Source: Sphingorhabdus sp. Alg231-15
GTDB taxonomy: Bacteria > Pseudomonadota > Alphaproteobacteria > Sphingomonadales > Sphingomonadaceae
Assembly (NCBI RefSeq): GCF_900149705.1
Contig: NZ_LT703001.1
Location: 248,001 to 312,000, forward strand
Length of the DNA: 64,000 bases
Reading direction: 5' to 3'
Numbering within the stretch: the first letter of the stretch is position 1; the number at the start of each line of letters is the position of its first letter. Under the pieces are notes generated by a model. The model was not told the origin of the DNA and made no database searches. It saw only the letters and a list, made by a program, of their open reading frames with translations. Below, piece by piece: positions 29,633 through 43,829 of this stretch. The translations under genes were made by a program, and so were the position numbers.

Positions 29633-31111
29633 ATGATTTTGAATACCACTTTGAAGATGGAAAAGGCGATGAGCCAGGCGGAAAACTATTCCGACTGGTC
29701 TGATGCGGCTGCCGCACATGATCGTTCCACGGGTGTCGATAAATGGAAGGCATCTGACGAAAGCAAGCATTTCGACAATGTTTCCATACGGCGACGGCTG
29801 AAACGCCTGTCAAAGCTCTGGAAGGCCCAGGATAATGCGGGTCTACTCTACGCACTGAATGAGGGCATTCATGGTAACATGGATGGTATGGGTAATGATC
29901 GCCTGCACCAGAAGGCAAGATTTGGTACCAAGCAGCTCATTCAGGATTATGTCGACGCCATCGTTAACTCGCTGGAATATCTGGCCAGCGATAAGGTTGA
30001 TGACATTCCTTTTGAAGAGAAGCTAGATTTCTTTCGCCGGGCGCAACATTGTTATGGTCGTTCGGCTTTCCTAATGAGCGGCTCCGGTGCCTTCCTCTAT
30101 TTTCATATGGGCGTGGTCAAGGCCTTATGGTCAGAAGGGCTGTTGCCGCATATCATGTCTGGGTCGAGTGGCGGATCCGTGGTTGGTGCGCTGATCAGTA
30201 CCCACATGGATGATGAAATCCCTCCCTTTTTTGATCCAGAAAATCTCGTCACGGATGGCCGGAGTGATGAAACCGGGCAGAATGGTATCGGTCTCTTCGG
30301 AACCACAAGGCGTCTTAAGGTTGACGAAATTCGCGAGCGGATTTCTACAATGATTCCGGATCTGACTTTCCAGGAGGCGTATGAGCTTACTGGCAGGCAT
30401 CTTAATGTTTCAATCGCACCGGCGGAAAAGCATCAGACATCGCGTCTTTTGAACGCGATTGCATCACCCAATGTCTATATTCGCGAAGCAGTGATGGCAT
30501 CCTGTGCCGTGCCGGGCGTATATCCGCCTGTAACACTGGCAGCCAAAGATCATACCGGTGAACGCAAACCTTATCTGCCCAATAGGAAATGGGTGGATGG
30601 TTCGGTCACCCATGACCTGCCAGCCAAACGACTTGGCCGGCTATATGGGGTCAATCATCACATCGTCAGTCAGGCAAATCCGCTGATCACGCCCTTTGCA
30701 ACGGACGTTAAACAGCAAAGAACACCGATTTCTGCGATTAGAAATGCGACGACCTCAACAATGAAGGCTTGGCTCAATGCCAATGTTGAGATCATGCAGA
30801 AACCATTGTCCTATTTCCCGCGGCTGAACAGCATGGCCAATATGACACTTTCAGTAATCAACCAGGACTATACCGGTGATATTAACATCATTAGGCCGAC
30901 CATGTTCTGGAGCCCTGCGAAAATTCTCAGTGATTTGTCGGTAGAGGAGATTGGCGAGCTCATTCAGTTGGGAGAGCGCACGACGTGGCCGAAGATTGAA
31001 ATGGTCCGTACGCAAACCAAAATTAGTCAAACACTGGACCGCATATTGTTCGAGTATGAAACCGAATTGGCGCATGATCATATGATTGCGATGAAAAGGA
31101 AAATCGCTTGA
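29633..31111 (+). CDS. DUF3336-patatin phospholipase/triacylglycerol lipase
   Basis: A 492-residue lipase with an N-terminal DUF3336 region (about 20-130) and a patatin domain. The nucleophile Ser179 lies in GSSGG (GxSxG), the oxyanion stretch GSGAFLYFHMGVVKAL is before it, and the catalytic Asp322 is in VDGS. The DUF3336-patatin pair is the architecture of yeast Tgl3/4/5 and plant SDP1 triacylglycerol lipases (family knowledge). ATG 29669 (MSQAENYSDW) is an alternative start with a GGAAAAGG site before it. Its stop overlaps the next gene's start. Confidence 0.88.
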   Translation: MILNTTLKMEKAMSQAENYSDWSDAAAAHDRSTGVDKWKASDESKHFDNVSIRRRLKRLSKLWKAQDNAGLLYALNEGIHGNMDGMGNDRLHQKARFGTKQLIQDYVDAIVNSLEYLASDKVDDIPFEEKLDFFRRAQHCYGRSAFLMSGSGAFLYFHMGVVKALWSEGLLPHIMSGSSGGSVVGALISTHMDDEIPPFFDPENLVTDGRSDETGQNGIGLFGTTRRLKVDEIRERISTMIPDLTFQEAYELTGRHLNVSIAPAEKHQTSRLLNAIASPNVYIREAVMASCAVPGVYPPVTLAAKDHTGERKPYLPNRKWVDGSVTHDLPAKRLGRLYGVNHHIVSQANPLITPFATDVKQQRTPISAIRNATTSTMKAWLNANVEIMQKPLSYFPRLNSMANMTLSVINQDYTGDINIIRPTMFWSPAKILSDLSVEEIGELIQLGERTTWPKIEMVRTQTKISQTLDRILFEYETELAHDHMIAMKRKIA

Positions 31112-31962
31112 AGCACCAGGAAGGCGCACTAACATTACCCGCACCGTCTGAAGCGGCAGGGGCAAAGCTCTATTGTCAAAGCTGGACTCCCGAACAGACC
31201 CCGAAGGCAGTTATTGTCCTTGTCCACGGTTATGATGAACATAGCGGGCGCTACGCTTATTTCGCCGAACATTGCACCAAGAAAGGCTTTGCGGTGCACA
31301 GCCTTGATCATTGGGGACACGGAAGATCGGATGGAGTTAATGGCTTTGTTCCCAATTTTTCGGTCTATCATGACGGTTTAGATGCGCTGATTGAGGAACT
31401 ACCAGCTGAACAAAAGGGGCTACCAATAGTTCTGGTCGGCCATAGTTTGGGCGGACTGATCAGCGCCACATATTTACTGAAAGACCAGACCCGCTTTGTC
31501 GCAGCGGTCTTGTCTGGACCAGCGATAAAGGCAACCGAAGAACCATCATCATTCATGAAGGGATTGAGTAAGCTCCTGTCCAGTATTGCTCCGAAAATGG
31601 GAGTATTGGGGCTTGATGCGAATGGTGTGAGCCGTGATCCAGCGGTTGTTGCAGACTATCTTGCCGACCCATTGGTTTCTGGCACGAAGATCAGTGCGCG
31701 GTTGGCCGCTGAAATGATGGCAAATATGGAAACAGTTCAAGGTCAGGCAACGAAAATCACATTGCCCATGCTCCTGCTACATGGAGAAAAAGACAGATTG
31801 ACCGCTCCGGAAGGTTCGGTGTTCCTACATGAGAATATCGCCTCCGAAACAAAAATGCTGAAAATCTATCCTGAGTTATTTCATGAGATTTTTAACGAAC
31901 CTGAGAAAGATGCGGTGCTTTCTGACATGACGAACTGGATCGACTCCATATTGGCGGGTTAA
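31108..31962 (+). CDS. Monoacylglycerol lipase-like alpha/beta hydrolase
   Basis: A 284-residue serine hydrolase (Hydrolase_4 / monoglyceride lipase type): HGYDEHSGRYAYFAEH with the HG oxyanion start, HWGHGRSDG, nucleophile Ser113 in GHSLGG, Asp229 in HGEKDR and His259 in FHEIFNEPEK. This is the wording of monoacylglycerol lipase. It would finish triacylglycerol breakdown after the patatin lipase. The start is a TTG at 31108, overlapping the previous stop, with AAGGA 8 bases before it; no other good start exists until well inside. Confidence 0.88.
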   Translation: MKHQEGALTLPAPSEAAGAKLYCQSWTPEQTPKAVIVLVHGYDEHSGRYAYFAEHCTKKGFAVHSLDHWGHGRSDGVNGFVPNFSVYHDGLDALIEELPAEQKGLPIVLVGHSLGGLISATYLLKDQTRFVAAVLSGPAIKATEEPSSFMKGLSKLLSSIAPKMGVLGLDANGVSRDPAVVADYLADPLVSGTKISARLAAEMMANMETVQGQATKITLPMLLLHGEKDRLTAPEGSVFLHENIASETKMLKIYPELFHEIFNEPEKDAVLSDMTNWIDSILAG

Positions 31963-31993
31963 CTCAGAAAACTGCGAACGGGGGAAATTCGCA

Positions 31994-32923
31994 ATGATGA
32001 TCATATTATATATTCTCGGAGCCTTTATTCTGGCGCTTCTCGCCGGATATTTCATTCTGCCGAAAGCTCTTTATGACCTAATGACCGCACTGCTCCGTTT
32101 TCGTGGGGGGATGCGGCAAAAGTCGGTCAAAGTTGGAGATAATGTCTGGCCTTATCTGGAAGGAGGCCGCCGCGATGGCGTACCAATGGTCTTGCTGCAT
32201 GGTTTCGGCGGCGACAAAGACAACTGGTCGATCTATGCACCGCATATTACCAAACATCTCCGACTAATCGCACCGGATTTGCCTGGCTTTGGTGAAAATG
32301 ACAGATCTCTTGATCGTGATTACGATATCGCGTCGCAAGTCCATCGATTGAGCGCTTTTCTCGACGCCATGAATATCCCGCAATGCCATATTGGCGGTAA
32401 CAGCATGGGCGGATTTATAGCGCTGCAATTTGCGATGGAATATCCGGATAAGGTTTCATCCTTAACCCTATTCAACAATGCCGGCGTGGTGGGAGTCGAC
32501 AAAAGTGAATTGGCAATTGCAGCTGAAAAAGGTGAAAATTCGTTGGCCTTGACCGACCTAGCCGATGTTGATCGGCTTATGGCATTTATATCGTACAAAC
32601 CGGTGCCTATGCCCAAAAACTTCAAGAAAATTTTCTTTGCGGAAGCAGAAGCACATAGAGAATTGCTTGATAAGATCTTTTGGCAGATCGCCGGTGCTGG
32701 CATAAATAACCCGCTTAATGACCGTCTTGGAGAAATTGCGGCGCCAACGCTCATCATCTGGGGACGTCATGACCGTCTGATTGACGTTAGCTGTGTTTCG
32801 GTCCTGGAGACAGGGATCAGGAATAGTGAATCTTTCATTCTGGAAGAAACAGGGCATGTTCCTATGATCGAGAAGCCCAAAGAAACGGCTGCTCGACATA
32901 TTGCATTTCTTGCCAAACACTAA
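31994..32923 (+). CDS. Membrane-anchored alpha/beta hydrolase
   Basis: A 309-residue alpha/beta hydrolase with one N-terminal transmembrane helix (about 3-24, then KALYDLMTALLRFRGG). The hydrolase has HGFGGDKDNW for the oxyanion loop, Ser137 in GNSMGG, Asp in WGRHDRLI and His in GHVPMIEKP. The substrate is unknown. Placed in the lipid operon (31 bases after the monoglyceride lipase), it is probably another lipase or esterase anchored to the inner membrane. Confidence 0.85.
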   Translation: MMIILYILGAFILALLAGYFILPKALYDLMTALLRFRGGMRQKSVKVGDNVWPYLEGGRRDGVPMVLLHGFGGDKDNWSIYAPHITKHLRLIAPDLPGFGENDRSLDRDYDIASQVHRLSAFLDAMNIPQCHIGGNSMGGFIALQFAMEYPDKVSSLTLFNNAGVVGVDKSELAIAAEKGENSLALTDLADVDRLMAFISYKPVPMPKNFKKIFFAEAEAHRELLDKIFWQIAGAGINNPLNDRLGEIAAPTLIIWGRHDRLIDVSCVSVLETGIRNSESFILEETGHVPMIEKPKETAARHIAFLAKH

Positions 32924-32979
32924 TTTTCCCGCCAGTTTAGTCAGATAGAACTCCCCAAGCAGGGGAGTCGCGAGAAAAA

Positions 32980-33996
32980 ATGGGGGACGAGGCTGTGAAA
33001 TTGCGAGTTGGGCTACTGGGTGGCGGTTCGTGGGGGACAACAGTGGCTTCACTGGTATCACGCAATGCTCCCATCAAGATATGGGCTCGAGACACCGAAA
33101 CTGTTCAGGATATCAACCAAAACCATCGCAACAGCAAATATCTTCCCGACGCAGAATTGCCAGCAGCATTAAAGGCGACAGATGCCATTGGTGACGCGGT
33201 CGCAGATGCAGATGTCCTGGTCATGGGCATTCCATCAAATAATTTTCGAAAGGTTCTTGAGGAAGCCAAGCCATTTTTGCGGCCTTGGGTACCGGTGATA
33301 AGTCTCACCAAAGGCCTTGAGTTATCCACTGGAAAGCGCATGACCGAGGTTATCGAAGACGTTCTGCCAGGTCATCCGGTGGGCGTTCTAACTGGTCCCA
33401 ATCTAGCGCGAGAAATCATGGCCGGCCAGGCGGCGGCGAGTGTGATTTCAATGGAAGATGAAATCATTGTCAAACAGCTTCAGCAGCTGTTCCATTCGGG
33501 ACTCTTCCGCGTGTATACCAATACTGACCTGCTGGGTTGTGAGCTGGGCGGAGTACTCAAAAATATTATCGCGATCGCTGTTGGAATGGGCGATGGATTG
33601 GGGGCAGGAGACAATACCCGTTCTGCTCTAATCACGCGTGGGCTTGCAGAGATCACGCGGCTTGGTGTCGCAATGGGTGGGCGACCTGAAACTTTTGCGG
33701 GCCTAACCGGAATGGGTGACATGATTGCGACATGCACAAGCCCGCTAAGTCGAAACCGTCATGTCGGTGTGGAGCTGGGCAAAGGGCGTAATATTGATGA
33801 AATCATAGAAGAAATGCTCATGGTGGCTGAGGGTGTGAAGAGTGCGCCAACGGTGATGGCCTTAGCTAAAAAATACAATGTCGCTATGCCCATAGCCGAG
33901 GATGTTTTCGAGGTAACCAAAGGCACCAGGACGGCTATACGCGCCTATCGCGGCCTGATCAGCGCATCTGCCGGATCCGAAGCAGAAGCAGGGTAA
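32980..33996 (+). CDS. gpsA: Glycerol-3-phosphate dehydrogenase [NAD(P)+]
   Basis: GpsA (338 residues) reduces dihydroxyacetone phosphate to glycerol-3-phosphate for phospholipid and triacylglycerol synthesis. The N-terminal dinucleotide fold GLLGGGSWGTTVASL, the GLELSTGKRMTEVIED stretch, TGPNLAREIMAGQ and GVLKNIIAIAVGMGDGLGAGDNTRSAL with the catalytic Lys are all present. It starts 56 bases after the membrane hydrolase. Its position next to plsB links glycerol-3-phosphate supply with acylation. Confidence 0.96.
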   Translation: MGDEAVKLRVGLLGGGSWGTTVASLVSRNAPIKIWARDTETVQDINQNHRNSKYLPDAELPAALKATDAIGDAVADADVLVMGIPSNNFRKVLEEAKPFLRPWVPVISLTKGLELSTGKRMTEVIEDVLPGHPVGVLTGPNLAREIMAGQAAASVISMEDEIIVKQLQQLFHSGLFRVYTNTDLLGCELGGVLKNIIAIAVGMGDGLGAGDNTRSALITRGLAEITRLGVAMGGRPETFAGLTGMGDMIATCTSPLSRNRHVGVELGKGRNIDEIIEEMLMVAEGVKSAPTVMALAKKYNVAMPIAEDVFEVTKGTRTAIRAYRGLISASAGSEAEAG

Positions 33997-34040
33997 CCAA
34001 TAGCCATAAGAATTATTTTTCTAACTACAGAACCTGATTT

Positions 34041-34158
34041 GAAAGGGATTAAATAAGAGGCACTATTTGTTCGATTTATTTTCAGTTTTACCAGATTTTA
34101 CAATCGCTTATTTACCATTAAGTGCCGCAAAAGATTGGGAATCTGAAAGGGTGATTAA
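34041..34158 (+). repeat. Direct repeats upstream of the DSF synthase gene
   Basis: GAAAGGGATTAA at 34041-34052 and GAAAGGGTGATTAA at 34145-34158 share the same pattern, differing by a two-base insert, in the 289-base AT-rich gap between gpsA and rpfF. They may be regulator binding sites. I see no terminator for gpsA here; a TTGACT at about 34176 is a possible -35 for rpfF. Confidence 0.35.
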
Positions 34159-34285
34159 GGTCAATAGTTAACTTTTTGACTTTTACTTGCTTCTTTTTGG
34201 GGCGTGCCATAAAAATATGTCCCAAGCACTTCGGAAATTGTTACGCCAGAGTTTCGACGTAACCCCGATTATGTGGAGAGTATAT

Positions 34286-35239
34286 ATGGATTTAAGAAGC
34301 CAAGCCGTGAATGATATTGATGCCGATCTGGTCATTGATGGGACCGATGCATTGATCACATCGGAGCATGGTTTTGGTCAGGATATACTCACACAAAAAT
34401 TCAACGAAATAGACCTGCGGTTCGATAAATCCGACGAAATCTTCTGGTGCTATATGAACCAGAAATCCCGACCTAGTTACACTTATGAATTGGGTGATGA
34501 GATCCAGTTGGTGCAGGATTGGGTGCACACGAATTACGCCATGGACGCAAGTCACGCGGTCGATCCCCTAAGATATTTTGTATGCGGTTCACATACGCCA
34601 GGAATATATAATCTGGGTGGTGATCTAAAGCATTTTGCGGATTGCATAAGACGCCGTGATCTAGGCGCTTTAAAAAAATACGCACGCACATGTGTTCACA
34701 TGCAATTTGCCAATAGCACTGGCTTTGGAGCTCCTATCATCACTATGGCGTTGGTGCAGGGCGATGCTTTAGGTGGCGGATTTGAGCATGCCTTGGCCTT
34801 TGACATTTTGGTTGCCGAAAAAAGTGCGCGATTGGGTTTGCCGGAAATTTTGTTCAATCTTTTCCCGGGAATGGGTGCCTATAGCTATCTCCGGCAACGA
34901 TTGAGCCGGCGTGATACAGAGCAGTTTATTCTCGAAGGAAAGTTGTTCTCGGCTGAAGAACTCTATGACATGGGCGTTGTCGATATACTCGCTGAAGATG
35001 GCCAGGGTGAGGCCGCGATTGTTGAATATACCAAACAGAATCGTAAACGCTTTCATGCCGAACGTGCAGTCTACAAGGCGCGGCGCCTTGCTAATCCGGT
35101 GACTATTGATGAGTTGCTCGAGATTACTGATATGTGGGCAGAAACGGCGTTGCATCTGGAAGAGGCCGACGTCCGCAAAATGGAGCGTCTAGCCATGGCG
35201 CAGGAACGCAGAATAGAACGCTCGCTTCGCACCGTTTAG
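34286..35239 (+). CDS. rpfF: RpfF-like DSF (diffusible signal factor) synthase, crotonase fold
   Basis: A 318-residue crotonase-family protein that I identify as an RpfF-type synthase of a cis-2-unsaturated fatty-acid signal. The signature LVQGDALGGGFE and LPEILFNLFPGMGAYS matches RpfF closely; catalytic glutamates are Glu167 and Glu187, 20 residues apart as in RpfF (Glu141 and Glu161). RpfF dehydrates 3-hydroxyacyl-ACP and releases the acid with its thioesterase activity (family knowledge). ATG 34286 follows GGAGAG at 34275-34280; longer frames reach TTG 34187. It is 318 against about 289 residues in Xanthomonas, the extra being N-terminal. It converges on the RpfC-like kinase with 7 bases between. 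Confidence 0.88.
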   Translation: MDLRSQAVNDIDADLVIDGTDALITSEHGFGQDILTQKFNEIDLRFDKSDEIFWCYMNQKSRPSYTYELGDEIQLVQDWVHTNYAMDASHAVDPLRYFVCGSHTPGIYNLGGDLKHFADCIRRRDLGALKKYARTCVHMQFANSTGFGAPIITMALVQGDALGGGFEHALAFDILVAEKSARLGLPEILFNLFPGMGAYSYLRQRLSRRDTEQFILEGKLFSAEELYDMGVVDILAEDGQGEAAIVEYTKQNRKRFHAERAVYKARRLANPVTIDELLEITDMWAETALHLEEADVRKMERLAMAQERRIERSLRTV

Positions 35240-35246
35240 ATATAGG

Positions 35247-37832
35247 TTATCCTGCTGCACTGACGTCTTCGCTGGATTCACTATCTGTGTGCTCTTTCTG
35301 ACCGTTCAGAAATGCGGTAATTCGTGACAATTCTTTTTCAATTTGAGCAAGATATTCCAAACGGTTCTCATTGAAATCGGCTTCCGTCACAACTTCGAGC
35401 TTACCGCACATTTGTGCGAGTCTGCAGGCGCCGACATTATTGGCACCGCTCTTGAAGGCATGCGCCTGAAAGCGGAAGTCAGCAACATCACGGTTTTTTA
35501 TCGAATCTTCAAATGCAGCCATCACTTCTAACGTGTCATCGAGATAGGCATCTATGATAGACTGCACGAAGGTTTCGTCGCCTATTGATCTGAGATAGTC
35601 CATCTGTTCGTTGTCAATCGGTGGTTCCAGCTCATCCGCAGATTTCGCGTTTATCGAGCGAACAACGTTAAACGGATCTGCATCACCATTGATTTGGGCT
35701 TCGTCTGCAGTCAAAAAATTGCCTGTTTGTTCAGCCACTGTGTCCAACAGAAGGCCTGCTTCAATAGGTTTGGTCAATCGAAGATCCATCCCGGCGTCGA
35801 GACATCTCTTCTCAGTTTCAATCGTCGAATCTGCCGTCAAGCCAATGACCGGAACATGATTTCGGGGGCCTTCAATCTGTCGCCATAGCTTACAGCACTC
35901 TACGCCTCCCATGTTGGGCATGTTCACGTCGAGGAATACGATATCAAATGCTTGTTTCTCAAGCTCATCCAATGCTTGTTCGCCATCGGAGACCACGACC
36001 ACCTGGTGACCTGCATTGACCAATATCGTTTGCAATACCATCTGATTAGTGCGGTTATCGTCGGCAACCAGGACGTTCAAGCTCACCGATGTCCGAATTA
36101 TCTGGTCGGGATCAACATCAGTTTTCTTACCGACGCGGTTGAAAGAACAACCAATTTGAATGACGCTGCGCACCGTGTCGAAATCGGGTGACGCTGGTAA
36201 GACTGAAGCAAAGGCAGCACGCAGTTTGATTTCATCCAGACTTTTGCTGCTATTTCTGGACAGAAGAACTGGTGGAAGATTGGCCTCACGGAAGTGATTC
36301 CAGAATATCTCATCGTCCTTATGCTGTTCAGCTATTTCTTCATCAAGTAGAGCCAAATCATAGGAGGAGAGGGGATGGTTCTTAAGGATCGTTTCCAACC
36401 GGTCATCTTTAGCACATTGAATATGGTTGACCCGAGCATTGTTGCTTTCTTTTTTGGAGATATCTGGACCGTTCAATCCAAAGCCCAATGACAGTATCTT
36501 GAAACTATCTTCGCCAGGTGCTTCTTCTACGCTGGCAACAAGGTCAATAGGACAGTTTAAGGTGAAGGTACTGCCTTCTCCAATCGCACTTTCCAGGTCA
36601 ATGTCGCCTCCCATCTGCCTCGCCAACTGCTGGCAGATCGCAAGTCCCAATCCGGTGCCGCCGAACGTATCAAGGATACTGTCGTCCGCCTGTTGAAAAA
36701 CGCCAAAGATTTTTTCATGAGCTTCGGCCGCGATTCCAGGGCCCGTGTCGGTTACGGAACACCACAATTGTGGCACTTCTTCATTCTCATCTATGCCGCA
36801 TTTCAGAACAATCGCCCCGGTTTCTGTGAACTTCACGGCATTGCTGGTAAGATTGATCAGGATGTTCCGAATATAGTCCAACTGACCCGCGATCAACTGA
36901 TCGCTCATGGCTTCGGCTTGCAGGTGGATTTGCAAGCCTTTCTCTGTTGCGGCCAGTTGCATGATGTCTCTGACGTCAGTCAAGACATCCACGACACTAA
37001 ATTCCTTGGGTTCAGGCAGCTCTTCCTGCGTATCCGATTGGGCAAAACTCAAAAGCTGGTTGATCAAATGAAGCAGATGCTGACCGGCAGAAACGCTCGT
37101 ACCCACCATCTGCTGCTGTGCCTCGGGCAACTTCATATCAAGGAGATGCGTACCGTAGCCGATGATGGCATTGAGGGGGGTCCGCAGTTCGTGGCTAATG
37201 CTGGCGAGGAAAAGACTCTTTGCTTTATTGGCTTCCTCAGCTTCTTTCGTCGCTTTTGAAATCTTGATGATTAGCGTCGAGCAATAAGCTGGCACGACAA
37301 TTAATCCGATTAGAAGCCCTGAAGATAGCGACATATTCTGATGCCAATAGGGATCATTGTAAACGGTCCAGCCAAAGGAGATTGTCCCTAGAGTGGCCGC
37401 GATGCCAAGCCATTTGACGCCAAAACGAAAACCGTAACCTAGTATAACCCACAGATATAAGGGATAGAGCGCAGCTACCGCGCCGCCGCCAATGTCGAAC
37501 AAATAAGTTGCAACACCAAAATCTACGATAAGTCCTGCGAGCCGCCTGGGATTGCTTGGTTGGGGGTTGAACCGATAAGCGATCATGATCGCTAAACTAC
37601 CCATAAGGTGCAATTGGAAACCAAACACAAGATGGGGTGCCGCATCAAGAAAGAACGTGATGGTGAGGGCGATGATAATCAGCACGAGGCGATTGATAAT
37701 CATTTCCCGCTCACGGTCCCGACCGCGCGTAATTACATCATTATGGTGCCGGTTATGATGGTGCCCGGACCGTTTGTGTTTATGACTGTTTTTGTGACTA
37801 TTTTTACGCGTGCTTGACGTGAAGGACAGCAT
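35247..37832 (-). CDS. rpfC: RpfC-like hybrid histidine kinase (sensor, HK, REC, HPt)
   Basis: An 861-residue hybrid kinase. A basic, His-rich cytosolic start (8 His in residues 13-30) precedes a membrane sensor of about five helices (47-190). The sensor has RpfC-like wording: RRLAGLIVDF, LYPLYLWVILGYGFRFG, PYW and SSGLLIGLIVVPAY. Then H-box His214 (SHELRTPLN), ATPase with N (NLTSNAVKF) and G boxes, a degenerate receiver-like stretch (about 440-560), a true receiver with Asp635 (FLDVNMPN) and an HPt domain with His791 (HAFKSGANNVG). RpfC senses DSF and binds RpfF through its REC domain in Xanthomonas. It is 5 bases after the REC-PAS-GGDEF-EAL gene, so the two form an operon. Confidence 0.85.
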   Translation of the reverse strand: MLSFTSSTRKNSHKNSHKHKRSGHHHNRHHNDVITRGRDREREMIINRLVLIIIALTITFFLDAAPHLVFGFQLHLMGSLAIMIAYRFNPQPSNPRRLAGLIVDFGVATYLFDIGGGAVAALYPLYLWVILGYGFRFGVKWLGIAATLGTISFGWTVYNDPYWHQNMSLSSGLLIGLIVVPAYCSTLIIKISKATKEAEEANKAKSLFLASISHELRTPLNAIIGYGTHLLDMKLPEAQQQMVGTSVSAGQHLLHLINQLLSFAQSDTQEELPEPKEFSVVDVLTDVRDIMQLAATEKGLQIHLQAEAMSDQLIAGQLDYIRNILINLTSNAVKFTETGAIVLKCGIDENEEVPQLWCSVTDTGPGIAAEAHEKIFGVFQQADDSILDTFGGTGLGLAICQQLARQMGGDIDLESAIGEGSTFTLNCPIDLVASVEEAPGEDSFKILSLGFGLNGPDISKKESNNARVNHIQCAKDDRLETILKNHPLSSYDLALLDEEIAEQHKDDEIFWNHFREANLPPVLLSRNSSKSLDEIKLRAAFASVLPASPDFDTVRSVIQIGCSFNRVGKKTDVDPDQIIRTSVSLNVLVADDNRTNQMVLQTILVNAGHQVVVVSDGEQALDELEKQAFDIVFLDVNMPNMGGVECCKLWRQIEGPRNHVPVIGLTADSTIETEKRCLDAGMDLRLTKPIEAGLLLDTVAEQTGNFLTADEAQINGDADPFNVVRSINAKSADELEPPIDNEQMDYLRSIGDETFVQSIIDAYLDDTLEVMAAFEDSIKNRDVADFRFQAHAFKSGANNVGACRLAQMCGKLEVVTEADFNENRLEYLAQIEKELSRITAFLNGQKEHTDSESSEDVSAAG

Positions 37833-37837
37833 GGAAA

Positions 37838-39994
37838 CTATCCTTCGGCCGAGCTAGAAACATGTTTGCGCTGTGCTTGAAACAGCTTAGGCAAGTCTTC
37901 CGCACGTTGTGGCCGGGCAATCTTAAAACCCTGGATTTCGTCACATCCTGATACCTGCAGTAGCTCAAGTTGAGCATCATTCTCGACACCCTCGGCTATC
38001 ACCCGCATATCTAACGCGTGGGCAAGATGCGAGATCGTACCAATAATGGCCCGATCAGCAGCAGAATGTTCAATCCGCGATATAAAAGTGCGGTCAATCT
38101 TGAGGCAGTTTGCCGGAAGATCACGCAGATATTGCAGCGAGGAATAGCCGGTTCCGAAATCATCAATAGAAATGCCGACACCGGCCTTGCGCAATCGATG
38201 TAATGTCTGGCTCACGTGATCATTGTTATGGAGCAAGAGTTCTTCGGTAATCTCCACCACGATTTTCGACGGATCAATATCATTCAGTTCGATATTCTTG
38301 AGTATGTCTTCACAGACATTCTGGTTCTGAAACTGTCTTGGAGACACGTTTATGGCAACGCGGGGAAGCTCGACGCCCTCATCCGCTGATTGCCGAATCT
38401 GGCTGCAAACCTCTGCGATAACCCATTTGCCCAGAGTGTCCATAATCCCGGTGTCATCGGCTACACGGATGAACTGAACCGGCAGCAGACGTCCGCGGGT
38501 CGGATGATCCCAGCGGATCAAGGCTTCCAACCCGACATAGTTTAGTGTTTTTGCATCCACTATCGGCTGATATTCAAGGACGAACTGATTTTGACTCAAC
38601 GCATCCCGCAGTTCAATCTCTAGCGCAGCGTCAGCCTGTGCGATCTGGTTCATTCCCTCAGAGAAGAAGCGATGGCAATTGCGGCCATTGGCTTTTGCGT
38701 CATACATGGCCAGATCGGCGAGCCTTAGCAGTTCTTCATATTCATTGCCGTCTGAAGGGATTAAGCTGACACCGATGCTGGCGCCGATTACCTGTTCAAT
38801 GCCGCTGATTGAATAGGGCTCGTTGATCGCTTTCAGGATTTTGGTGCAACGAGAATTGATCGTATCAGCACCATCAACCTCGCCGAGAATAATCGCAAAT
38901 TCGTCCCCGCCAATCCGTGCTGCAAAATCATCGGGACCGATAATATCCAACAATCTTTCTGCAACTTCCCGCAAAAGGGTGTCGCCGCTATGATGGCCTC
39001 TTGTATCGTTAATCACCTTGAACCGGTCGAGATCAAGCAAAAGAAGCGCGGCCTCTTTTCCCGATTTCTGGCAGGTGTCGATTGCCTTGCGAACCTTTTC
39101 TGCAAGCAAGGCGCGATTGGGAAGCCCGGTTAGCATGTCATGCAAGGCCAGATGGGTGCGATGCTCTTCAGCAAATTTACGGGCGGTAATGTCAACCGCT
39201 GTTGTCAATACGCCAATGGTTTCGCCCTTGTGATTGAGCAGCGGAGATTTGTTGCAATGGAAAATAAGCTCCACACCGTCACTGGTGAACTTCTCTTCAT
39301 AATGAGGAATGGGCTGTTCAGATCTCAGAACGACCTTATTTCGACGGTCAGAATTTCGCGCTAATTCTGGGCCCAGCAAATCGCCAAAGTCTCTTCCGAC
39401 CATTTCATCTGGCGTTTTATCAAACAGTGCCGATTGATAAGCGTTGGTGAACAGGCATCGTCCCGAACGATCTGTAGCATTGATCATGATCGGTATCGTA
39501 TCGATGATCTGTTCCAACATGCTCTTGTTTGTTGGAGCGCTATGTTCGGTATTGTCAGTAACCGACGCGTGTTTGCGCTCAATCTCGGAAGCGCGCTTGC
39601 GCAGATTGACACTTTTCTCACTTTTGGTGAGCAATGACATCGCTCTTTTGCAAAATTCTACATGCGAAACCGGGCTTTGAAGAAAGTCAGTGGCTCCAGC
39701 ATCGAGTGCGGACAGCCGACATTCACGGTCCTGATGCGCCGTAATGACAATCGCCGGTACATCACTGCAACTCGACATTTTGCGGACTTTTTTGATGAAT
39801 TCTGCACCATTCATCTTGGGCATGCGATAGTCCACAACCAGCAACTCAGCCGTATTTTTGTGTAGCCAGTCTAGCGCTTCGACAGGATCAGCAAATGTCA
39901 CGGAAGAGTATTTCTCCCCCATGATTGTCACGAACTGGGCATAAATCCTGAGATTTGTAGGCCGGTCATCAACGATAAGAACACGCGTGGTCAT
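37838..39994 (-). CDS. Response regulator with REC, PAS, GGDEF and EAL domains
   Basis: A 718-residue cyclic-di-GMP enzyme: REC (1-120) with acidic pair VDDRPTN and phospho-Asp55 (VVDYRMP), PAS (about 145-270, with DRSGRCLFTNAY), GGDEF (about 280-440, GGDEF intact, no RxxD before it) and EAL (LEALIRWDHP and DDFGTGYSSL intact). The conserved REC lysine (KP) is replaced by Ser107 in FLQSPV. ATG 39994 (MTTRVLIVDD) is the sensible start; the frame runs to 40114 but the extra residues lack REC pattern. It stands in the rpfG position beside rpfC, so it is the likely partner of the kinase. Confidence 0.9.
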   Translation of the reverse strand: MTTRVLIVDDRPTNLRIYAQFVTIMGEKYSSVTFADPVEALDWLHKNTAELLVVDYRMPKMNGAEFIKKVRKMSSCSDVPAIVITAHQDRECRLSALDAGATDFLQSPVSHVEFCKRAMSLLTKSEKSVNLRKRASEIERKHASVTDNTEHSAPTNKSMLEQIIDTIPIMINATDRSGRCLFTNAYQSALFDKTPDEMVGRDFGDLLGPELARNSDRRNKVVLRSEQPIPHYEEKFTSDGVELIFHCNKSPLLNHKGETIGVLTTAVDITARKFAEEHRTHLALHDMLTGLPNRALLAEKVRKAIDTCQKSGKEAALLLLDLDRFKVINDTRGHHSGDTLLREVAERLLDIIGPDDFAARIGGDEFAIILGEVDGADTINSRCTKILKAINEPYSISGIEQVIGASIGVSLIPSDGNEYEELLRLADLAMYDAKANGRNCHRFFSEGMNQIAQADAALEIELRDALSQNQFVLEYQPIVDAKTLNYVGLEALIRWDHPTRGRLLPVQFIRVADDTGIMDTLGKWVIAEVCSQIRQSADEGVELPRVAINVSPRQFQNQNVCEDILKNIELNDIDPSKIVVEITEELLLHNNDHVSQTLHRLRKAGVGISIDDFGTGYSSLQYLRDLPANCLKIDRTFISRIEHSAADRAIIGTISHLAHALDMRVIAEGVENDAQLELLQVSGCDEIQGFKIARPQRAEDLPKLFQAQRKHVSSSAEG

Positions 39995-40091
39995 AGGGAT
40001 GCAATAGGCTGCGATAATCAAAATAAGGTTAACACATAATTGGTTGTGTAAAGCTCTGAATTCTATGCACCCAGATGTGGAAAAACAGCGC

Positions 40092-43000
40092 TCAAGCGTT
40101 GAGCAGAAAAACATCCCCGCCAGCGGCGGCCGTATTACATGTCACAGTCTTTTCGTGGACGAAACGATCATGTGAGTCCTGCAGTGTGAGAATTGGCAAT
40201 ATTGCTCCATTTCTTTCGGCAATTGCTGCTCCTAAGGCAATCATAGCTGGATCGATCGGGTCGACGATGATTCCGCCGATTAATCCGGCCTGTAGCTGAC
40301 GGAAAATATCTTCCGGTTCTGAGATCGCAGATTGTTGTACCAAATTATCAATGCCGGTTATTTCATTGATCGCGTTGCTCAGCTGTTCAACATTCCCATC
40401 GGATTGTTGCCGATCAATCTGCAGGAAACTGTTTCCGGTGACCAAGGCACGAGCGCAGGCAGTTAAGACAGCCGTTTGATCTTGAAGCAAGGAAACAACA
40501 AGGCCGCGCCCTTTGATACTATATATATTCGTTTCTCCTGCGGGAGACGCGAGGGAGATATTTGTGGTTAGGATCTCATTTCGAAGTGAGCGTTCGCGAC
40601 TTAGGATTTGTCCGAATTTATCTGGAGCAGCTTCCGTCAAAAGAGTCAGGCCATTGTCGTCAGACGAAATAGCACTCCATTGATCGTGAGACTTGATCCC
40701 AGCTGCGATCGAGTTCGCAAAATTGACAGAGGGAACGCGTTGATGCTCCATTGGTTCTTTGATGGGCTTTTCCACCATCATATTTTCGTCAGACTTTTCA
40801 CCTTTGGAAAGCCTCAGCAAATATAGCGGTCCTCCAGCTTTTGGACCTGTTCCTGACAGCCCTTGGCCACCGAATGGTTGAACGCCTACGACGGCGCCAA
40901 TCTGATTGCGGTTGATGTAAATGTTGCCCACTTGAGCGCGTTCAGCCATGTCTTCGGATAATCCGTCAATGCGACTGTGAATTCCCAGAGTCAGCCCAAA
41001 TCCACTATTGTTGATTTTATCAATCACAGCCATTTTCTCATCTGCCTTAAAGCGGACAACATGCAGTACGGGACCAAAAATCTCGCGATCGAGATCGGAA
41101 ATGTCATTGAGCTCATATGCGACCGGATTAACAAAGTGTCCTTTGTTTGATTGACCATCTTCCATAATGAGTTCTGATGAGACGCCGATTTTTCGTCCTA
41201 TCTCGTCCAAGCGGTCCAAATGACTGGTGATGTTCTGTTTGGCTGCTGCATCAATAACCGGACCAACATCATTGGATATATGCCAAGGATCGCCAACTTT
41301 AAGGGCCTGCATTGCTCCGCGAAGCAAGTCGATAAACTGGTCGGCGATGTCGTCCTGTACGCACAATATTCGCAGGGCTGAGCAACGCTGTCCGGCGCTT
41401 TGAAAAGCAGATGAAATGACAGCGTCTACAGTCTGCTCTGGGAGTGCCGATGAATCGACAATCATGGCATTGATACCACCGGTTTCAGCAATTAACGGAG
41501 TCAGCGGTCGACCGACCTGAGCCAATCTTCGCGTAATGCGTTTGGCTGTGGTCGTGGATCCGGTAAAGCAGACGGCTGCTGCCAGCGAATGGGAGATCAA
41601 TGCCTCGCCTATTAGCGCGCCAGAACCCGGAAGCAAGTTAACCGCTGCACCATCAATTCCGACATCATGCAATAAGCGTATGGCTTCCGCAGCAATAAGC
41701 GGCGTCTGTTCGGCAGGTTTGGCGACCACCGTGTTACCTGCGGCAAGTGCTGCGGTGATCTGGCCTAGAAAAATCGCAAGTGGGAAGTTCCAGGGCGAAA
41801 TACATATGGTCACGCCCAGAGGTTGGCGCTTGCTGAAAGACGGTGCTCTTGCCTGCTCAGCATAGTATCGACAAAAATCCACGGCCTCGCGGACCTCGTC
41901 AATTGCGTCACCCCATGTTTTTCCTGCTTCCTTGATCGCAAGATAATGAAAAAGACCGGATCGTTTTTCCAAAAGATCGGCCGCATCTTCAAGTAAGCCG
42001 GCGCGTTCTGCCGCGGAGCGACGGGACCAGCTTTTAAATGCTTCCTGAGCCGTAACCATCGCAATATTAGCCGCATTCTCGTCCGCGATAACAACAGAGC
42101 CAATTTGTTCTGAGGTTATCGCTGGATTAAATACAGGTGCTTCATCGCCTTGAATTTCCGCACCTGCGATGATCGGGGCGGAGATATGTGTTTGTTTCGC
42201 CGCGGTATTGAGTTCTTCTTGAAATCTCAAGCGATGCATCGAGTTCGCTAAATCCCAACCTTTTGCGGTTTTTCGTTCACTACTCAGATACTGTTTCGGC
42301 GGCGGGATTTTTTGGTTTGCGATGGTCGGATGTTGCGCCAATGCTGCAATCGGATCACGAATCAATGTCGATAATTCAATATTTGGATCGGCCAGCTTGT
42401 GCACAAACGAACTGTTGGCTCCGTTCTCCAACAATCGCCGAATAAGATAAGAGAGTAAGTCTTTCTGGGTGCCAACCGGCGCATATATTCGACTGTAGAT
42501 TTGGGGTTGGTCGAGAAGTCCATCATGCAGTTCTTGTCCCATGCCAAACAGCCGTTGGACTTCGATCGGGCGCTCGGGACCTGCGAGTTCCTTCACAGCA
42601 GCAATGCTATCGGCATTATGTGTGGCGAACTGAGCCACAAAGTGATCAGGGCTGGCTAACAATTTTTGTGCGCAGGTGAGATAGCTGAGATCGGTCATCT
42701 CCTTACGGGTAAAAACCGGGTAGGTTTCGAGTCCCATTTCCTGCGCGCGCTTTATCTCACTATCCCAATAAGCACCTTTGACCAGACGAATGAAAAGCGG
42801 TGCCTGCAATTGAGCGGCTTGCTTGGCCAACCAATCGATCAAGGGCAGGGCGCGCCTTTGATAAGCCTGAACTACGAACCCCAAACCTTTCCAGCCTTTC
42901 AGCTCGGGCGTGGCGACAAGCATGGCAAGAACATCCATCGATATGTCGAGCCGTTCTGTCTCTTCGGCATCAATCGTGATCTGGATGTTGGCCGCTCGTG

Positions 43001-43829
43001 CTTTAATCGCCAACGGAAGCAGCATTGCCGCTATTTCCGGAACAGCATGCTCTGCCTGTGCAAATTCATAACGCGGGTGAAGCGCAGATAGTTTGATGGA
43101 GATGCTATGATTTCTGCTTGGGTCATCGGAGTCTGCGTGGGCAGCAACCCGATCCAATGCATCGGCATATGACTTATAATATTTTTGCGCATCGGTTGCC
43201 GTGCGTGCGGCTTCGCCCAGCATATCAAAGGAAAAAACATAGCCTTGGCGACTATATTTCTCGCCTCGCCTGATTGCGCTATCCAGTGTTTCTGCGAACA
43301 CAAACTGGGAAGAAAGCGCTTTGATTGCGGTGCGGATCGCGAAGCGCAATTTGGCATTGCCTATTTTTGCAATGACTTTTGTGAGCGGGTTACTGGCGCT
43401 TTTGTTCCAGTGTAGCCAGCGATCAGTCAGATGGAGTAGTCGCCCTGACAGGCTCATCGCTAGCGTATGTCCGACGCCGCTATGAGACAGCCAGTCGCGG
43501 CCGATTAGCTTGTCTTGGATAAGTTCGTCAGCGGTAGTTGCATTCGTGGTCCGCGATAGTGCTTCGGCCAATCGCATCAGCTGCACCCCTTCGTCACTCG
43601 ACAAACCATATTCTGTCAAAAACTGATCGATCAAAGGCCGATTTTGAGAATGACGGAGCTGTTCAACCAGCAAGGTGCTAGCCTCTGATATCCGGTTCCA
43701 CGCAGCGCGATCGAGATTAAGCTCTCTTTGCATCTGCTCATGCAAATCGCGCTCGCTCCGCCACGTAGCGGAGGCCATTTTTGTTCGGAGGTTATTATCG
43801 ACCTTGGTGATAGCGAGATGTTGATTCAT
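40092..43829 (-). CDS. putA: Bifunctional proline dehydrogenase / delta-1-pyrroline-5-carboxylate dehydrogenase
   Basis: PutA (1245 residues) oxidises proline to glutamate in two steps with substrate channelling, at the inner membrane face. The PRODH barrel (about 140-440) includes HPRYEFAQAE, the RLVKGAYWDSEIKRAQ strand and LFGMGQELHDGLL-type residues; the P5C dehydrogenase part has PWNFPLAIFLGQITAALAAG, ETGGINAMIVD (Glu) and GQRCSALRILC (Cys). The N-terminus lacks a ribbon-helix-helix DNA-binding domain, so unlike Escherichia coli PutA it is not a self-repressor. An Lrp-type regulator lies divergently upstream. The C-terminal 200 residues form the usual non-catalytic extension. Confidence 0.95.
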   Translation of the reverse strand: MNQHLAITKVDNNLRTKMASATWRSERDLHEQMQRELNLDRAAWNRISEASTLLVEQLRHSQNRPLIDQFLTEYGLSSDEGVQLMRLAEALSRTTNATTADELIQDKLIGRDWLSHSGVGHTLAMSLSGRLLHLTDRWLHWNKSASNPLTKVIAKIGNAKLRFAIRTAIKALSSQFVFAETLDSAIRRGEKYSRQGYVFSFDMLGEAARTATDAQKYYKSYADALDRVAAHADSDDPSRNHSISIKLSALHPRYEFAQAEHAVPEIAAMLLPLAIKARAANIQITIDAEETERLDISMDVLAMLVATPELKGWKGLGFVVQAYQRRALPLIDWLAKQAAQLQAPLFIRLVKGAYWDSEIKRAQEMGLETYPVFTRKEMTDLSYLTCAQKLLASPDHFVAQFATHNADSIAAVKELAGPERPIEVQRLFGMGQELHDGLLDQPQIYSRIYAPVGTQKDLLSYLIRRLLENGANSSFVHKLADPNIELSTLIRDPIAALAQHPTIANQKIPPPKQYLSSERKTAKGWDLANSMHRLRFQEELNTAAKQTHISAPIIAGAEIQGDEAPVFNPAITSEQIGSVVIADENAANIAMVTAQEAFKSWSRRSAAERAGLLEDAADLLEKRSGLFHYLAIKEAGKTWGDAIDEVREAVDFCRYYAEQARAPSFSKRQPLGVTICISPWNFPLAIFLGQITAALAAGNTVVAKPAEQTPLIAAEAIRLLHDVGIDGAAVNLLPGSGALIGEALISHSLAAAVCFTGSTTTAKRITRRLAQVGRPLTPLIAETGGINAMIVDSSALPEQTVDAVISSAFQSAGQRCSALRILCVQDDIADQFIDLLRGAMQALKVGDPWHISNDVGPVIDAAAKQNITSHLDRLDEIGRKIGVSSELIMEDGQSNKGHFVNPVAYELNDISDLDREIFGPVLHVVRFKADEKMAVIDKINNSGFGLTLGIHSRIDGLSEDMAERAQVGNIYINRNQIGAVVGVQPFGGQGLSGTGPKAGGPLYLLRLSKGEKSDENMMVEKPIKEPMEHQRVPSVNFANSIAAGIKSHDQWSAISSDDNGLTLLTEAAPDKFGQILSRERSLRNEILTTNISLASPAGETNIYSIKGRGLVVSLLQDQTAVLTACARALVTGNSFLQIDRQQSDGNVEQLSNAINEITGIDNLVQQSAISEPEDIFRQLQAGLIGGIIVDPIDPAMIALGAAIAERNGAILPILTLQDSHDRFVHEKTVTCNTAAAGGDVFLLNA

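What the first reader, a model, noticed from the sequence alone, without database searches (positions are those of the whole stretch)
34286..39994. DSF-type quorum-sensing locus: RpfF synthase facing an RpfC-like kinase and a REC-PAS-GGDEF-EAL output
Seen: an RpfF-like crotonase with Glu167 and Glu187 in the two RpfF catalytic motifs, 7 bases from the end of an RpfC-like hybrid kinase (membrane sensor, HK, REC, HPt), and a cyclic-di-GMP protein 5 bases upstream of the kinase in the same operon. Known: Xanthomonas has rpfF convergent with rpfGHC, with RpfG = REC-HD-GYP; Burkholderia uses RpfF with RpfR = PAS-GGDEF-EAL. Inference: this sphingomonad fuses both designs, a membrane RpfC sensor feeding a REC-PAS-GGDEF-EAL enzyme. 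I know of no described sphingomonad DSF circuit, but cannot search.
Basis: partly seen in the sequence, partly recalled or inferred. Interest (0 to 1): 0.88.

Follow-up and report, generated by a model that had tools for sequence, protein, structure and literature searches.

The report
Rewired DSF-type quorum-sensing gene cluster
A sphingomonad bacterium, like several other alphaproteobacteria, carries the gene set for a fatty-acid cell-to-cell signalling system best known from Xanthomonas, but its switch protein drives a different enzyme for the messenger cyclic-di-GMP, and its sensor has lost most of the residues known to detect the classical signal.

Summary
At 34286-39994 an RpfF-type crotonase converges, 7 bases apart, on an RpfC-like hybrid kinase lying 5 bases behind a REC-PAS-GGDEF-EAL gene. 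The crotonase groups with solved RpfFs and away from four of this genome's own hydratases. The kinase's sensor and receiver are RpfC-like. In 385 alphaproteobacterial genomes 24 have the crotonase, 24 the sensor, 22 both.

'Fusion of two designs' needs correcting. The receiver of the GGDEF-EAL protein is of the RpfG lineage (100/99), so the RpfC-RpfG relay is kept and its output exchanged; the EAL domain is not RpfR's. Other alphaproteobacteria have REC-PAS-histidine kinase in that place.

Against a simple DSF reading: of five RpfC residues essential for DSF sensing the window keeps two. All five survive in 1 of 47 anchored kinases of this output class, 13 of 16 with the kinase output and 12 of 22 with HD-GYP. 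A histidine-rich N-terminus precedes that motif in the window's clade. Signal, sensing and direction of c-di-GMP change are inferred. Ten open-access searches showed no such circuit. New variant of a known kind.

The parts
34286..35239 (+). RpfF-type crotonase (317 aa); Glu167/Glu187 correspond to Xcc RpfF Glu141/Glu161, Gly112/Gly164 to Gly86/Gly138 (offset 26)
   Evidence: Xcc residues named in passages of PMC9040811
35247..37832 (-). RpfC-like hybrid kinase (861 aa): helical membrane sensor, HisKA, HATPase_c, REC, HPt
37701..37832 (-). N-terminal 44 residues of the kinase: histidine-rich (8 His in residues 1-40), then the altered sensing motif GRDREREM (residues 37-44)
   Evidence: near-identical relative L059; AAGGA about 10 bases before the ATG
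37838..39994 (-). REC-PAS-GGDEF-EAL protein (718 aa); receiver of the RpfG lineage; GGDEF motif present, RxxD inhibitory site not found, EAL motifs present

Best explanation
This is an alphaproteobacterial branch of the DSF (rpf) quorum-sensing system in which the output of the response regulator has been exchanged. Inferred working: the RpfF-type crotonase makes a cis-2-unsaturated fatty acid from a 3-hydroxyacyl-ACP. The RpfC-like membrane kinase responds to it, or to a related lipid cue, and passes phosphate through its own receiver and HPt domain to the receiver of the PAS-GGDEF-EAL protein, changing c-di-GMP. As in Xanthomonas (recalled), the kinase's receiver may also hold the synthase in check. 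Shown here: homology of all three parts, conserved convergent layout, co-occurrence of synthase and sensor across genomes, grouping of the output receiver with RpfG's, presence of the usual catalytic motifs. Not shown: the signal, its sensing, phosphotransfer, and whether c-di-GMP rises or falls.
For: Crotonase: 349 bits to PRK08788 (cut-off 177) and 223 bits to the RpfF model, against 65 bits for the best other hydratase model. A tree of 89 rows puts it with PDB RpfFs, apart from four own-genome hydratases, SH-aLRT 100. The first 12 Foldseek matches are RpfF, RpF-1 or DfsA entries, best 3m6m_C at E 2.3e-26, against 9.2e-15 for the first ordinary hydratase. Kinase: receiver's best PDB match is the RpfC receiver, E 1.8e-23; sensor aligns along its length with that of L148, whose crotonase passes NCBI's RpfF cut-off. 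Co-occurrence in 385 alphaproteobacterial genomes: crotonase 24, sensor 24, both 22 (hypergeometric P 2e-31, ignoring relatedness); neighbours in 17 of the 22. Family sample of 249: sensor 12, crotonase 92, both 10, all ten adjacent (P 0.001). Receiver: 45 RpfG-slot receivers form one group, 100/99, apart from 20 other receivers of this genome and 8 RpfC receivers. Motifs of HK, REC, HPt, GGDEF and EAL are present.
Against: The crotonase misses NCBI's RpfF equivalog cut-off (223 of 550 bits), although three RpfR-linked crotonases (180-188 bits) miss it too. Of five RpfC residues essential for DSF sensing the window keeps D17 and E19 and lacks R15, S18 and Q22 (residues from PMC5391125). 43 of 70 examined family crotonases show no such partner, so an RpfF-type crotonase alone does not imply this circuit. 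In G941 and G837 crotonase and sensor occur but lie apart. The receiver has Ser where RpfG receivers have Lys or Arg. The genome holds 10 other EAL matches. No chemistry was available.
Confidence: 0.7

Rival explanations
1. The circuit is of rpf descent but re-tuned: the window's clade no longer senses a classical DSF. The N-terminal stretch that binds DSF in RpfC has become a histidine-rich segment with a changed motif, so the kinase answers to another cue (another fatty acid, metal ions, pH), and the crotonase makes that other lipid or supplies a co-signal.
For: All five DSF-sensing residues kept in 1 of 47 anchored kinases with the GGDEF-EAL output, against 13 of 16 with the HK output and 12 of 22 with HD-GYP; Q22 kept in 1 of 47. 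Three or more His in the up to 40 residues before Glu19 in 21 of 47, against at most 2 in the 38 kinases of the other two output classes.
Against: Crotonase and kinase stay adjacent in the clade's loci and the crotonase keeps the four named catalytic positions. Glu19 is invariant in 39 aligned sensors. The sister Sphingorhabdus/Novosphingopyxis kinases lack the His-rich stretch, so the system does not need it. The motif counts follow clades and are not independent events. Histidine-rich stretches can be mere linkers, and start codons of relatives were not checked.
Confidence: 0.2
2. The crotonase is a housekeeping acyl-CoA or acyl-ACP enzyme that happens to lie beside an unrelated c-di-GMP two-component system.
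For: Many RpfF-type crotonases of the same family show no kinase or c-di-GMP neighbour (43 of 70 examined); near 39 such loci lie, in 31 each, clusters of an XrtA/PEP-CTERM-type amidotransferase and of an exosortase-like protein. No enzyme assay exists.
Against: Co-occurrence of crotonase and RpfC-like sensor in 22 of 385 genomes, with 24 and 24 in all, and the convergent layout across orders are hard to reconcile with chance neighbourhood. Its nearest solved folds are RpfFs.
Confidence: 0.07
3. It is an RpfF/RpfR system of the Burkholderia kind: the PAS-GGDEF-EAL protein itself binds the signal, and the kinase is accessory.
For: The output protein has PAS, GGDEF and EAL in RpfR's order.
Against: An RpfR N-terminal query (from L164) matched only the three RpfR-type loci, not the output proteins of the window's relatives (the window's own protein was not in that set, that of its near relative L059 was). 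RpfR EAL domains (3 rows) form their own clade, 100, apart from the window's; the window's crotonase lies outside the RpfR-linked clade; the protein starts with a receiver of the RpfG group.
Confidence: 0.03

Closest known systems
Xanthomonas RpfF-RpfC-RpfG DSF system
   Same: rpfF convergent on rpfC, regulator gene upstream of rpfC in the same direction; RpfF-type crotonase; RpfC-like sensor, HK, REC, HPt; receiver of the regulator groups with RpfG's. Xcc layout as in PMC4504480 (passages).
   Different: HD-GYP replaced by PAS-GGDEF-EAL; three of five DSF-sensing residues changed; His-rich N-terminus; no gene between kinase and regulator where Xcc has rpfH; no HD_5 match in this genome.
Burkholderia/Cronobacter RpfF-RpfR system
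   Same: RpfF-type synthase convergent with a gene for a PAS-GGDEF-EAL protein (for RpfR: PMC4504480, passages).
   Different: RpfR is itself the receptor; here there is a kinase and a receiver; EAL domain and synthase fall outside the RpfR-linked clades.
Alphaproteobacterial RpfF-RpfC with REC-PAS-histidine kinase (seen here; in no paper listing that I saw)
   Same: Same crotonase and kinase pair; receivers form one group of 31 with the window's, 100/100.
   Different: Output is a second histidine kinase instead of GGDEF-EAL; all five DSF-sensing residues kept in 13 of 16 kinases.

Membership tests
RpfF, DSF synthase | Groups with experimentally studied RpfF rather than degradative hydratases | tested here: met
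   the outgroup was four own-genome hydratases, all on long branches.
RpfF, DSF synthase | Glu141, Glu161, Gly86 and Gly138 of Xcc RpfF | tested here: met
   Glu167, Glu187, Gly112, Gly164 invariant in 48 sequences, offset 26; residues from PMC9040811 passages.
RpfF, DSF synthase | NCBIfam equivalog cut-off NF053515 (550 bits) | tested here: not met
   222.7 bits. 3 of 398 phylum genomes pass; three RpfR-linked crotonases (180-188 bits) fail too. Filed therefore as RpfF-type, not as the NCBI equivalog.
RpfF, DSF synthase | Makes a cis-2-unsaturated fatty acid | not testable with these tools
   Needs enzyme assay or LC-MS.
RpfC, DSF receptor kinase | Multi-helix membrane sensor homologous to RpfC, then HK, REC, HPt | tested here: met
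   model with five long helices, mean pLDDT 89.6.
RpfC, DSF receptor kinase | DSF-sensing residues R15, D17, S18, E19, Q22 | tested here: not met
   Window has G37, D39, R40, E41, M44 there: 2 of 5 (relatives). Filed as RpfC-like, not as an RpfC DSF receptor.
RpfG | Receiver of RpfG lineage | tested here: met
   Group of 45 receivers, 100/99; comparison limited to 20 of 25 other own receivers (two of them identical) and 8 RpfC receivers.
RpfG | HD-GYP output | tested here: not met
   PAS-GGDEF-EAL instead; no HD_5 match in the genome. Not an RpfG.
RpfR | RpfR N-terminal region and RpfR-type EAL | tested here: not met
   N-terminal query found only the three RpfR-type loci, not the output proteins of the window's relatives; window EAL outside the RpfR clade.
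c-di-GMP synthase/phosphodiesterase | Active-site motifs of GGDEF and EAL | tested here: met
   GGDEF 362, EALIR 490, NVS 549, EITE 581, DDFGTG 611, KID 632, AEGVE 667, QGF 688; RxxD not found; 350 bits to PDB 4rnh. The motif list is recalled. Activity itself not testable.

The most novel reading that the evidence does not exclude
In Alphaproteobacteria the RpfC-RpfG receiver pair is a fixed relay whose output is exchanged (HD-GYP, PAS-GGDEF-EAL, PAS-histidine kinase), and in the Parasphingorhabdus-type branch the exchange went with a rebuilt sensor tip: the DSF-binding motif decayed and a histidine-rich segment took its place, so that the kinase reads a new cue, such as a metal-dependent or different fatty-acid signal.
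Probability: 0.2. Interest if true: 0.78.

Novelty: new variant of a known kind. Interest (0 to 1): 0.62.

Why it matters
The 2015 review names two core DSF pathways, RpfC/RpfG and RpfR (PMC4504480, passages). If the present reading holds, Alphaproteobacteria have at least two more. For one of their families, Sphingomonadaceae, a cited title on luxI/luxR was the quorum-sensing work that came up (reference list). It shows a signalling relay keeping its receiver while changing its enzyme, and it gives a natural series in which loss of DSF-sensing residues goes with the change of output, which makes ligand recognition by RpfC testable.

Tried and rejected
Considered and rejected: (a) crotonase as degradative hydratase; (b) RpfR-type system; (c) chance neighbourhood. 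Rfam gave only two tRNAs in the window. Promoter matches in 33990-40200 were below the shuffled mean (7 against 8.6) and terminator matches 9 against 5.8 (sd 2.0); I drew nothing from them. Two hydrolases and gpsA upstream of the crotonase were seen beside it only in loci near the window's genus, so I left them out of the system.

Literature: ten searches listed no paper whose title or abstract start describes an alphaproteobacterial RpfF/RpfC circuit. Three lists were capped (20 of 222, 15 of 22, 12 of 235). Only open-access papers are held. I read passages of three papers (PMC4504480, PMC5391125, PMC9040811) and none in full.

Limits: the receiver tree used 20 of 25 other own receivers. Neighbours were examined for 70 of 92 family crotonases; of the 43 without partner, L037 was seen with 1.5 kb flanks only. 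Several 'RpfC only' and 'none' loci end at contig ends (such as L050). The motif count is anchored on E19 and R26, so E19 is kept there by construction; one search shows it independently. Scripts took the longest open frame, so start codons of relatives are unchecked. Trees are quick ones with SH-aLRT only.
Full report
What is there. Pfam confirms the domains. The kinase has H, N and G boxes, a receiver Asp and Lys and an HPt His; the output protein has GGDEF, no RxxD in front of it, and the usual EAL motifs (motif list recalled). The kinase ATG has an AAGGA about 10 bases before it.

The crotonase is RpfF-type. It scores 349 bits with PRK08788 (cut-off 177), 223 with the NCBI RpfF equivalog (cut-off 550, not met) and 65 with the best other hydratase model. 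Three RpfR-linked crotonases also fail that cut-off (180-188 bits), and 3 of 398 phylum genomes pass. In a quick tree of 89 rows the RpfF-type crotonases, with three PDB entries (3m6m and 6dgn named RpfF, and 7zq7, titled RpF-1), stand apart from four hydratases of the same genome at SH-aLRT 100; those four sit on long branches. The predicted fold (mean pLDDT 89.9) has RpfF, RpF-1 or DfsA structures as its first 12 PDB matches. The four positions named for Xcc RpfF (PMC9040811, passages) are invariant in 48 sequences.

The kinase is RpfC-like. Its receiver's best PDB match is the RpfC receiver, E 1.8e-23. Its sensor aligns along its length with that of L148, whose crotonase passes the RpfF cut-off. 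AlphaFold gives five long helices (mean pLDDT 89.6).

The pair belongs together. In a sample of 385 alphaproteobacterial genomes 24 have the crotonase at E 1e-40 or better, 24 have the sensor at 1e-8 or better, 22 have both, in 14 family codes; two have the crotonase only (G041, G275) and two the sensor only (G667, G913). Of the 22, 17 have the two genes side by side, three have them on different contigs with the crotonase near a contig end (G759, G821, G922; a kinase fragment is visible beside the last), and two have them apart (G837, G941). In 249 genomes of the window's family 92 have the crotonase, 12 the sensor, 10 both, and in those ten they are neighbours. G042 and G224 have the sensor but no crotonase at that threshold.

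Partners of the crotonase. Of the 79 loci, 40 have the window's layout (35 Sphingomonadales, 5 Hyphomicrobiales; the L081 output frame lacks EAL and the L069 kinase is split), 13 have kinase plus REC-HD-GYP, 11 kinase only (some cut by contig ends), 7 a membrane GGDEF-EAL protein, 1 a receiver fragment, 7 none of these within reach; five of those 7 have a same-strand GGDEF-EAL gene about 3 kb upstream and L050 is cut off. Of the 24 crotonase genomes in the class sample, 15 have kinase plus REC-PAS-HK or REC-HK (Pfam on five of them), 2 (own genome included) the window's layout, 1 a REC-PAS-HisKA_2 neighbour (L237), 3 are cut by contig ends and 3 show no such partner nearby. Of 70 family crotonases examined (of 92), 10 have the kinase, 17 an opposing GGDEF-EAL gene, 43 neither. 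Nine of the ten were seen whole with REC-PAS-GGDEF-EAL (window and L254-L261); G153 was seen with short flanks only.

The output was exchanged. In a careful receiver tree of 73 rows, 45 receivers from the RpfG slot (14 HD-GYP, 13 PAS-HK, 18 PAS-GGDEF-EAL including the window's) form one group, 100/99, with a long stem, apart from 20 other receivers of this genome and 8 RpfC receivers; the 31 alphaproteobacterial ones form a group at 100/100 (quick tree). The EAL domain does not group with RpfR's. So the simplest history keeps RpfC and the RpfG receiver and changes what follows it. The comparison set is small, which is the main weakness of this step.

The sensor tip has changed. The RpfC study names R15, D17, S18, E19 and Q22 as essential for sensing DSF (PMC5391125, abstract and passages). 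Anchored on E19 and R26, all five are kept in 13 of 16 kinases with the HK output, 12 of 22 with HD-GYP and 1 of 47 with GGDEF-EAL (a 48th could not be anchored), and in 3 of 12 with no output seen (three more not anchored). E19 counts as kept there by construction; it is invariant in the 39-row alignment too. The window has G, D, R, E, M. These counts follow clades and are not independent events. In the window's clade the residues before the motif are histidine-rich: 21 of 47 have three or more His in at most 40 residues, against at most 2 in the 38 kinases of the other two output classes; L055, a relative of the same clade whose output frame is cut, has 6.

Mechanism and how sure. Homology, layout, co-occurrence and receiver grouping are shown. 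That the crotonase makes a cis-2 fatty acid, that the kinase senses it, that phosphate flows to the REC of the GGDEF-EAL protein, and which way c-di-GMP changes, are inferred from RpfF, RpfC and RpfG. I put 0.70 on a DSF-type circuit with exchanged output, 0.20 on a re-tuned sensor for another cue, 0.07 on unrelated neighbours and 0.03 on an RpfR-type system.

Novelty. Ten searches of the open-access library listed no description of such an alphaproteobacterial circuit (three lists capped). Subscription papers and preprints are not held, so a description there is not excluded. It is a new variant of a known kind.

Noticed in passing
L232-L236, L239-L248 (alphaproteobacterial genomes): In 15 of 24 crotonase-bearing genomes of the class sample the RpfG slot holds a REC-(PAS-)histidine kinase, an output of the rpf relay that I saw in no paper listing.
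   Followed up: partly
L083, L085, L088, L107, L208, L262-L267, L159: In Sphingomonas and some other genomes an RpfF-type crotonase converges on a single protein with a 5-6 helix membrane region followed by GGDEF-EAL, with no kinase seen; a candidate one-component receptor.
   Followed up: partly
L192-L231 except L208: Partnerless RpfF-type crotonases: clusters of an asparagine-synthetase-like and of an exosortase-like protein lie upstream on the same strand in 31 of 39 loci each; one representative of each passes the NCBI XrtA/PEP-CTERM amidotransferase or exosortase A cut-off.
   Followed up: partly
window 37713-37832; L039-L046, L048-L061 (most), L074: Histidine-rich kinase N-terminus seen only in the window's clade among the kinases counted.
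   Followed up: partly
G042:C1:255717-256271 and G224:C7:16518-17072: RpfC-like sensor in a 561-residue frame in two family genomes without the crotonase; possibly a listener to foreign signals.
   Followed up: no
window 37841-39994, receiver: Ser (Thr in L063) in the 18 aligned receivers of this output class at the place where the aligned RpfG receivers show Lys or Arg.
   Followed up: no
window 29633-33996: Patatin-like phospholipase, two alpha/beta hydrolases and gpsA upstream of the crotonase; hydrolases and gpsA were seen beside it only in loci near the window's genus.
   Followed up: partly
window 40092-43829: Large gene upstream of the c-di-GMP gene on the same strand, PutA-type by eye (not scanned); seen there in several of the nearest relatives.
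   Followed up: no
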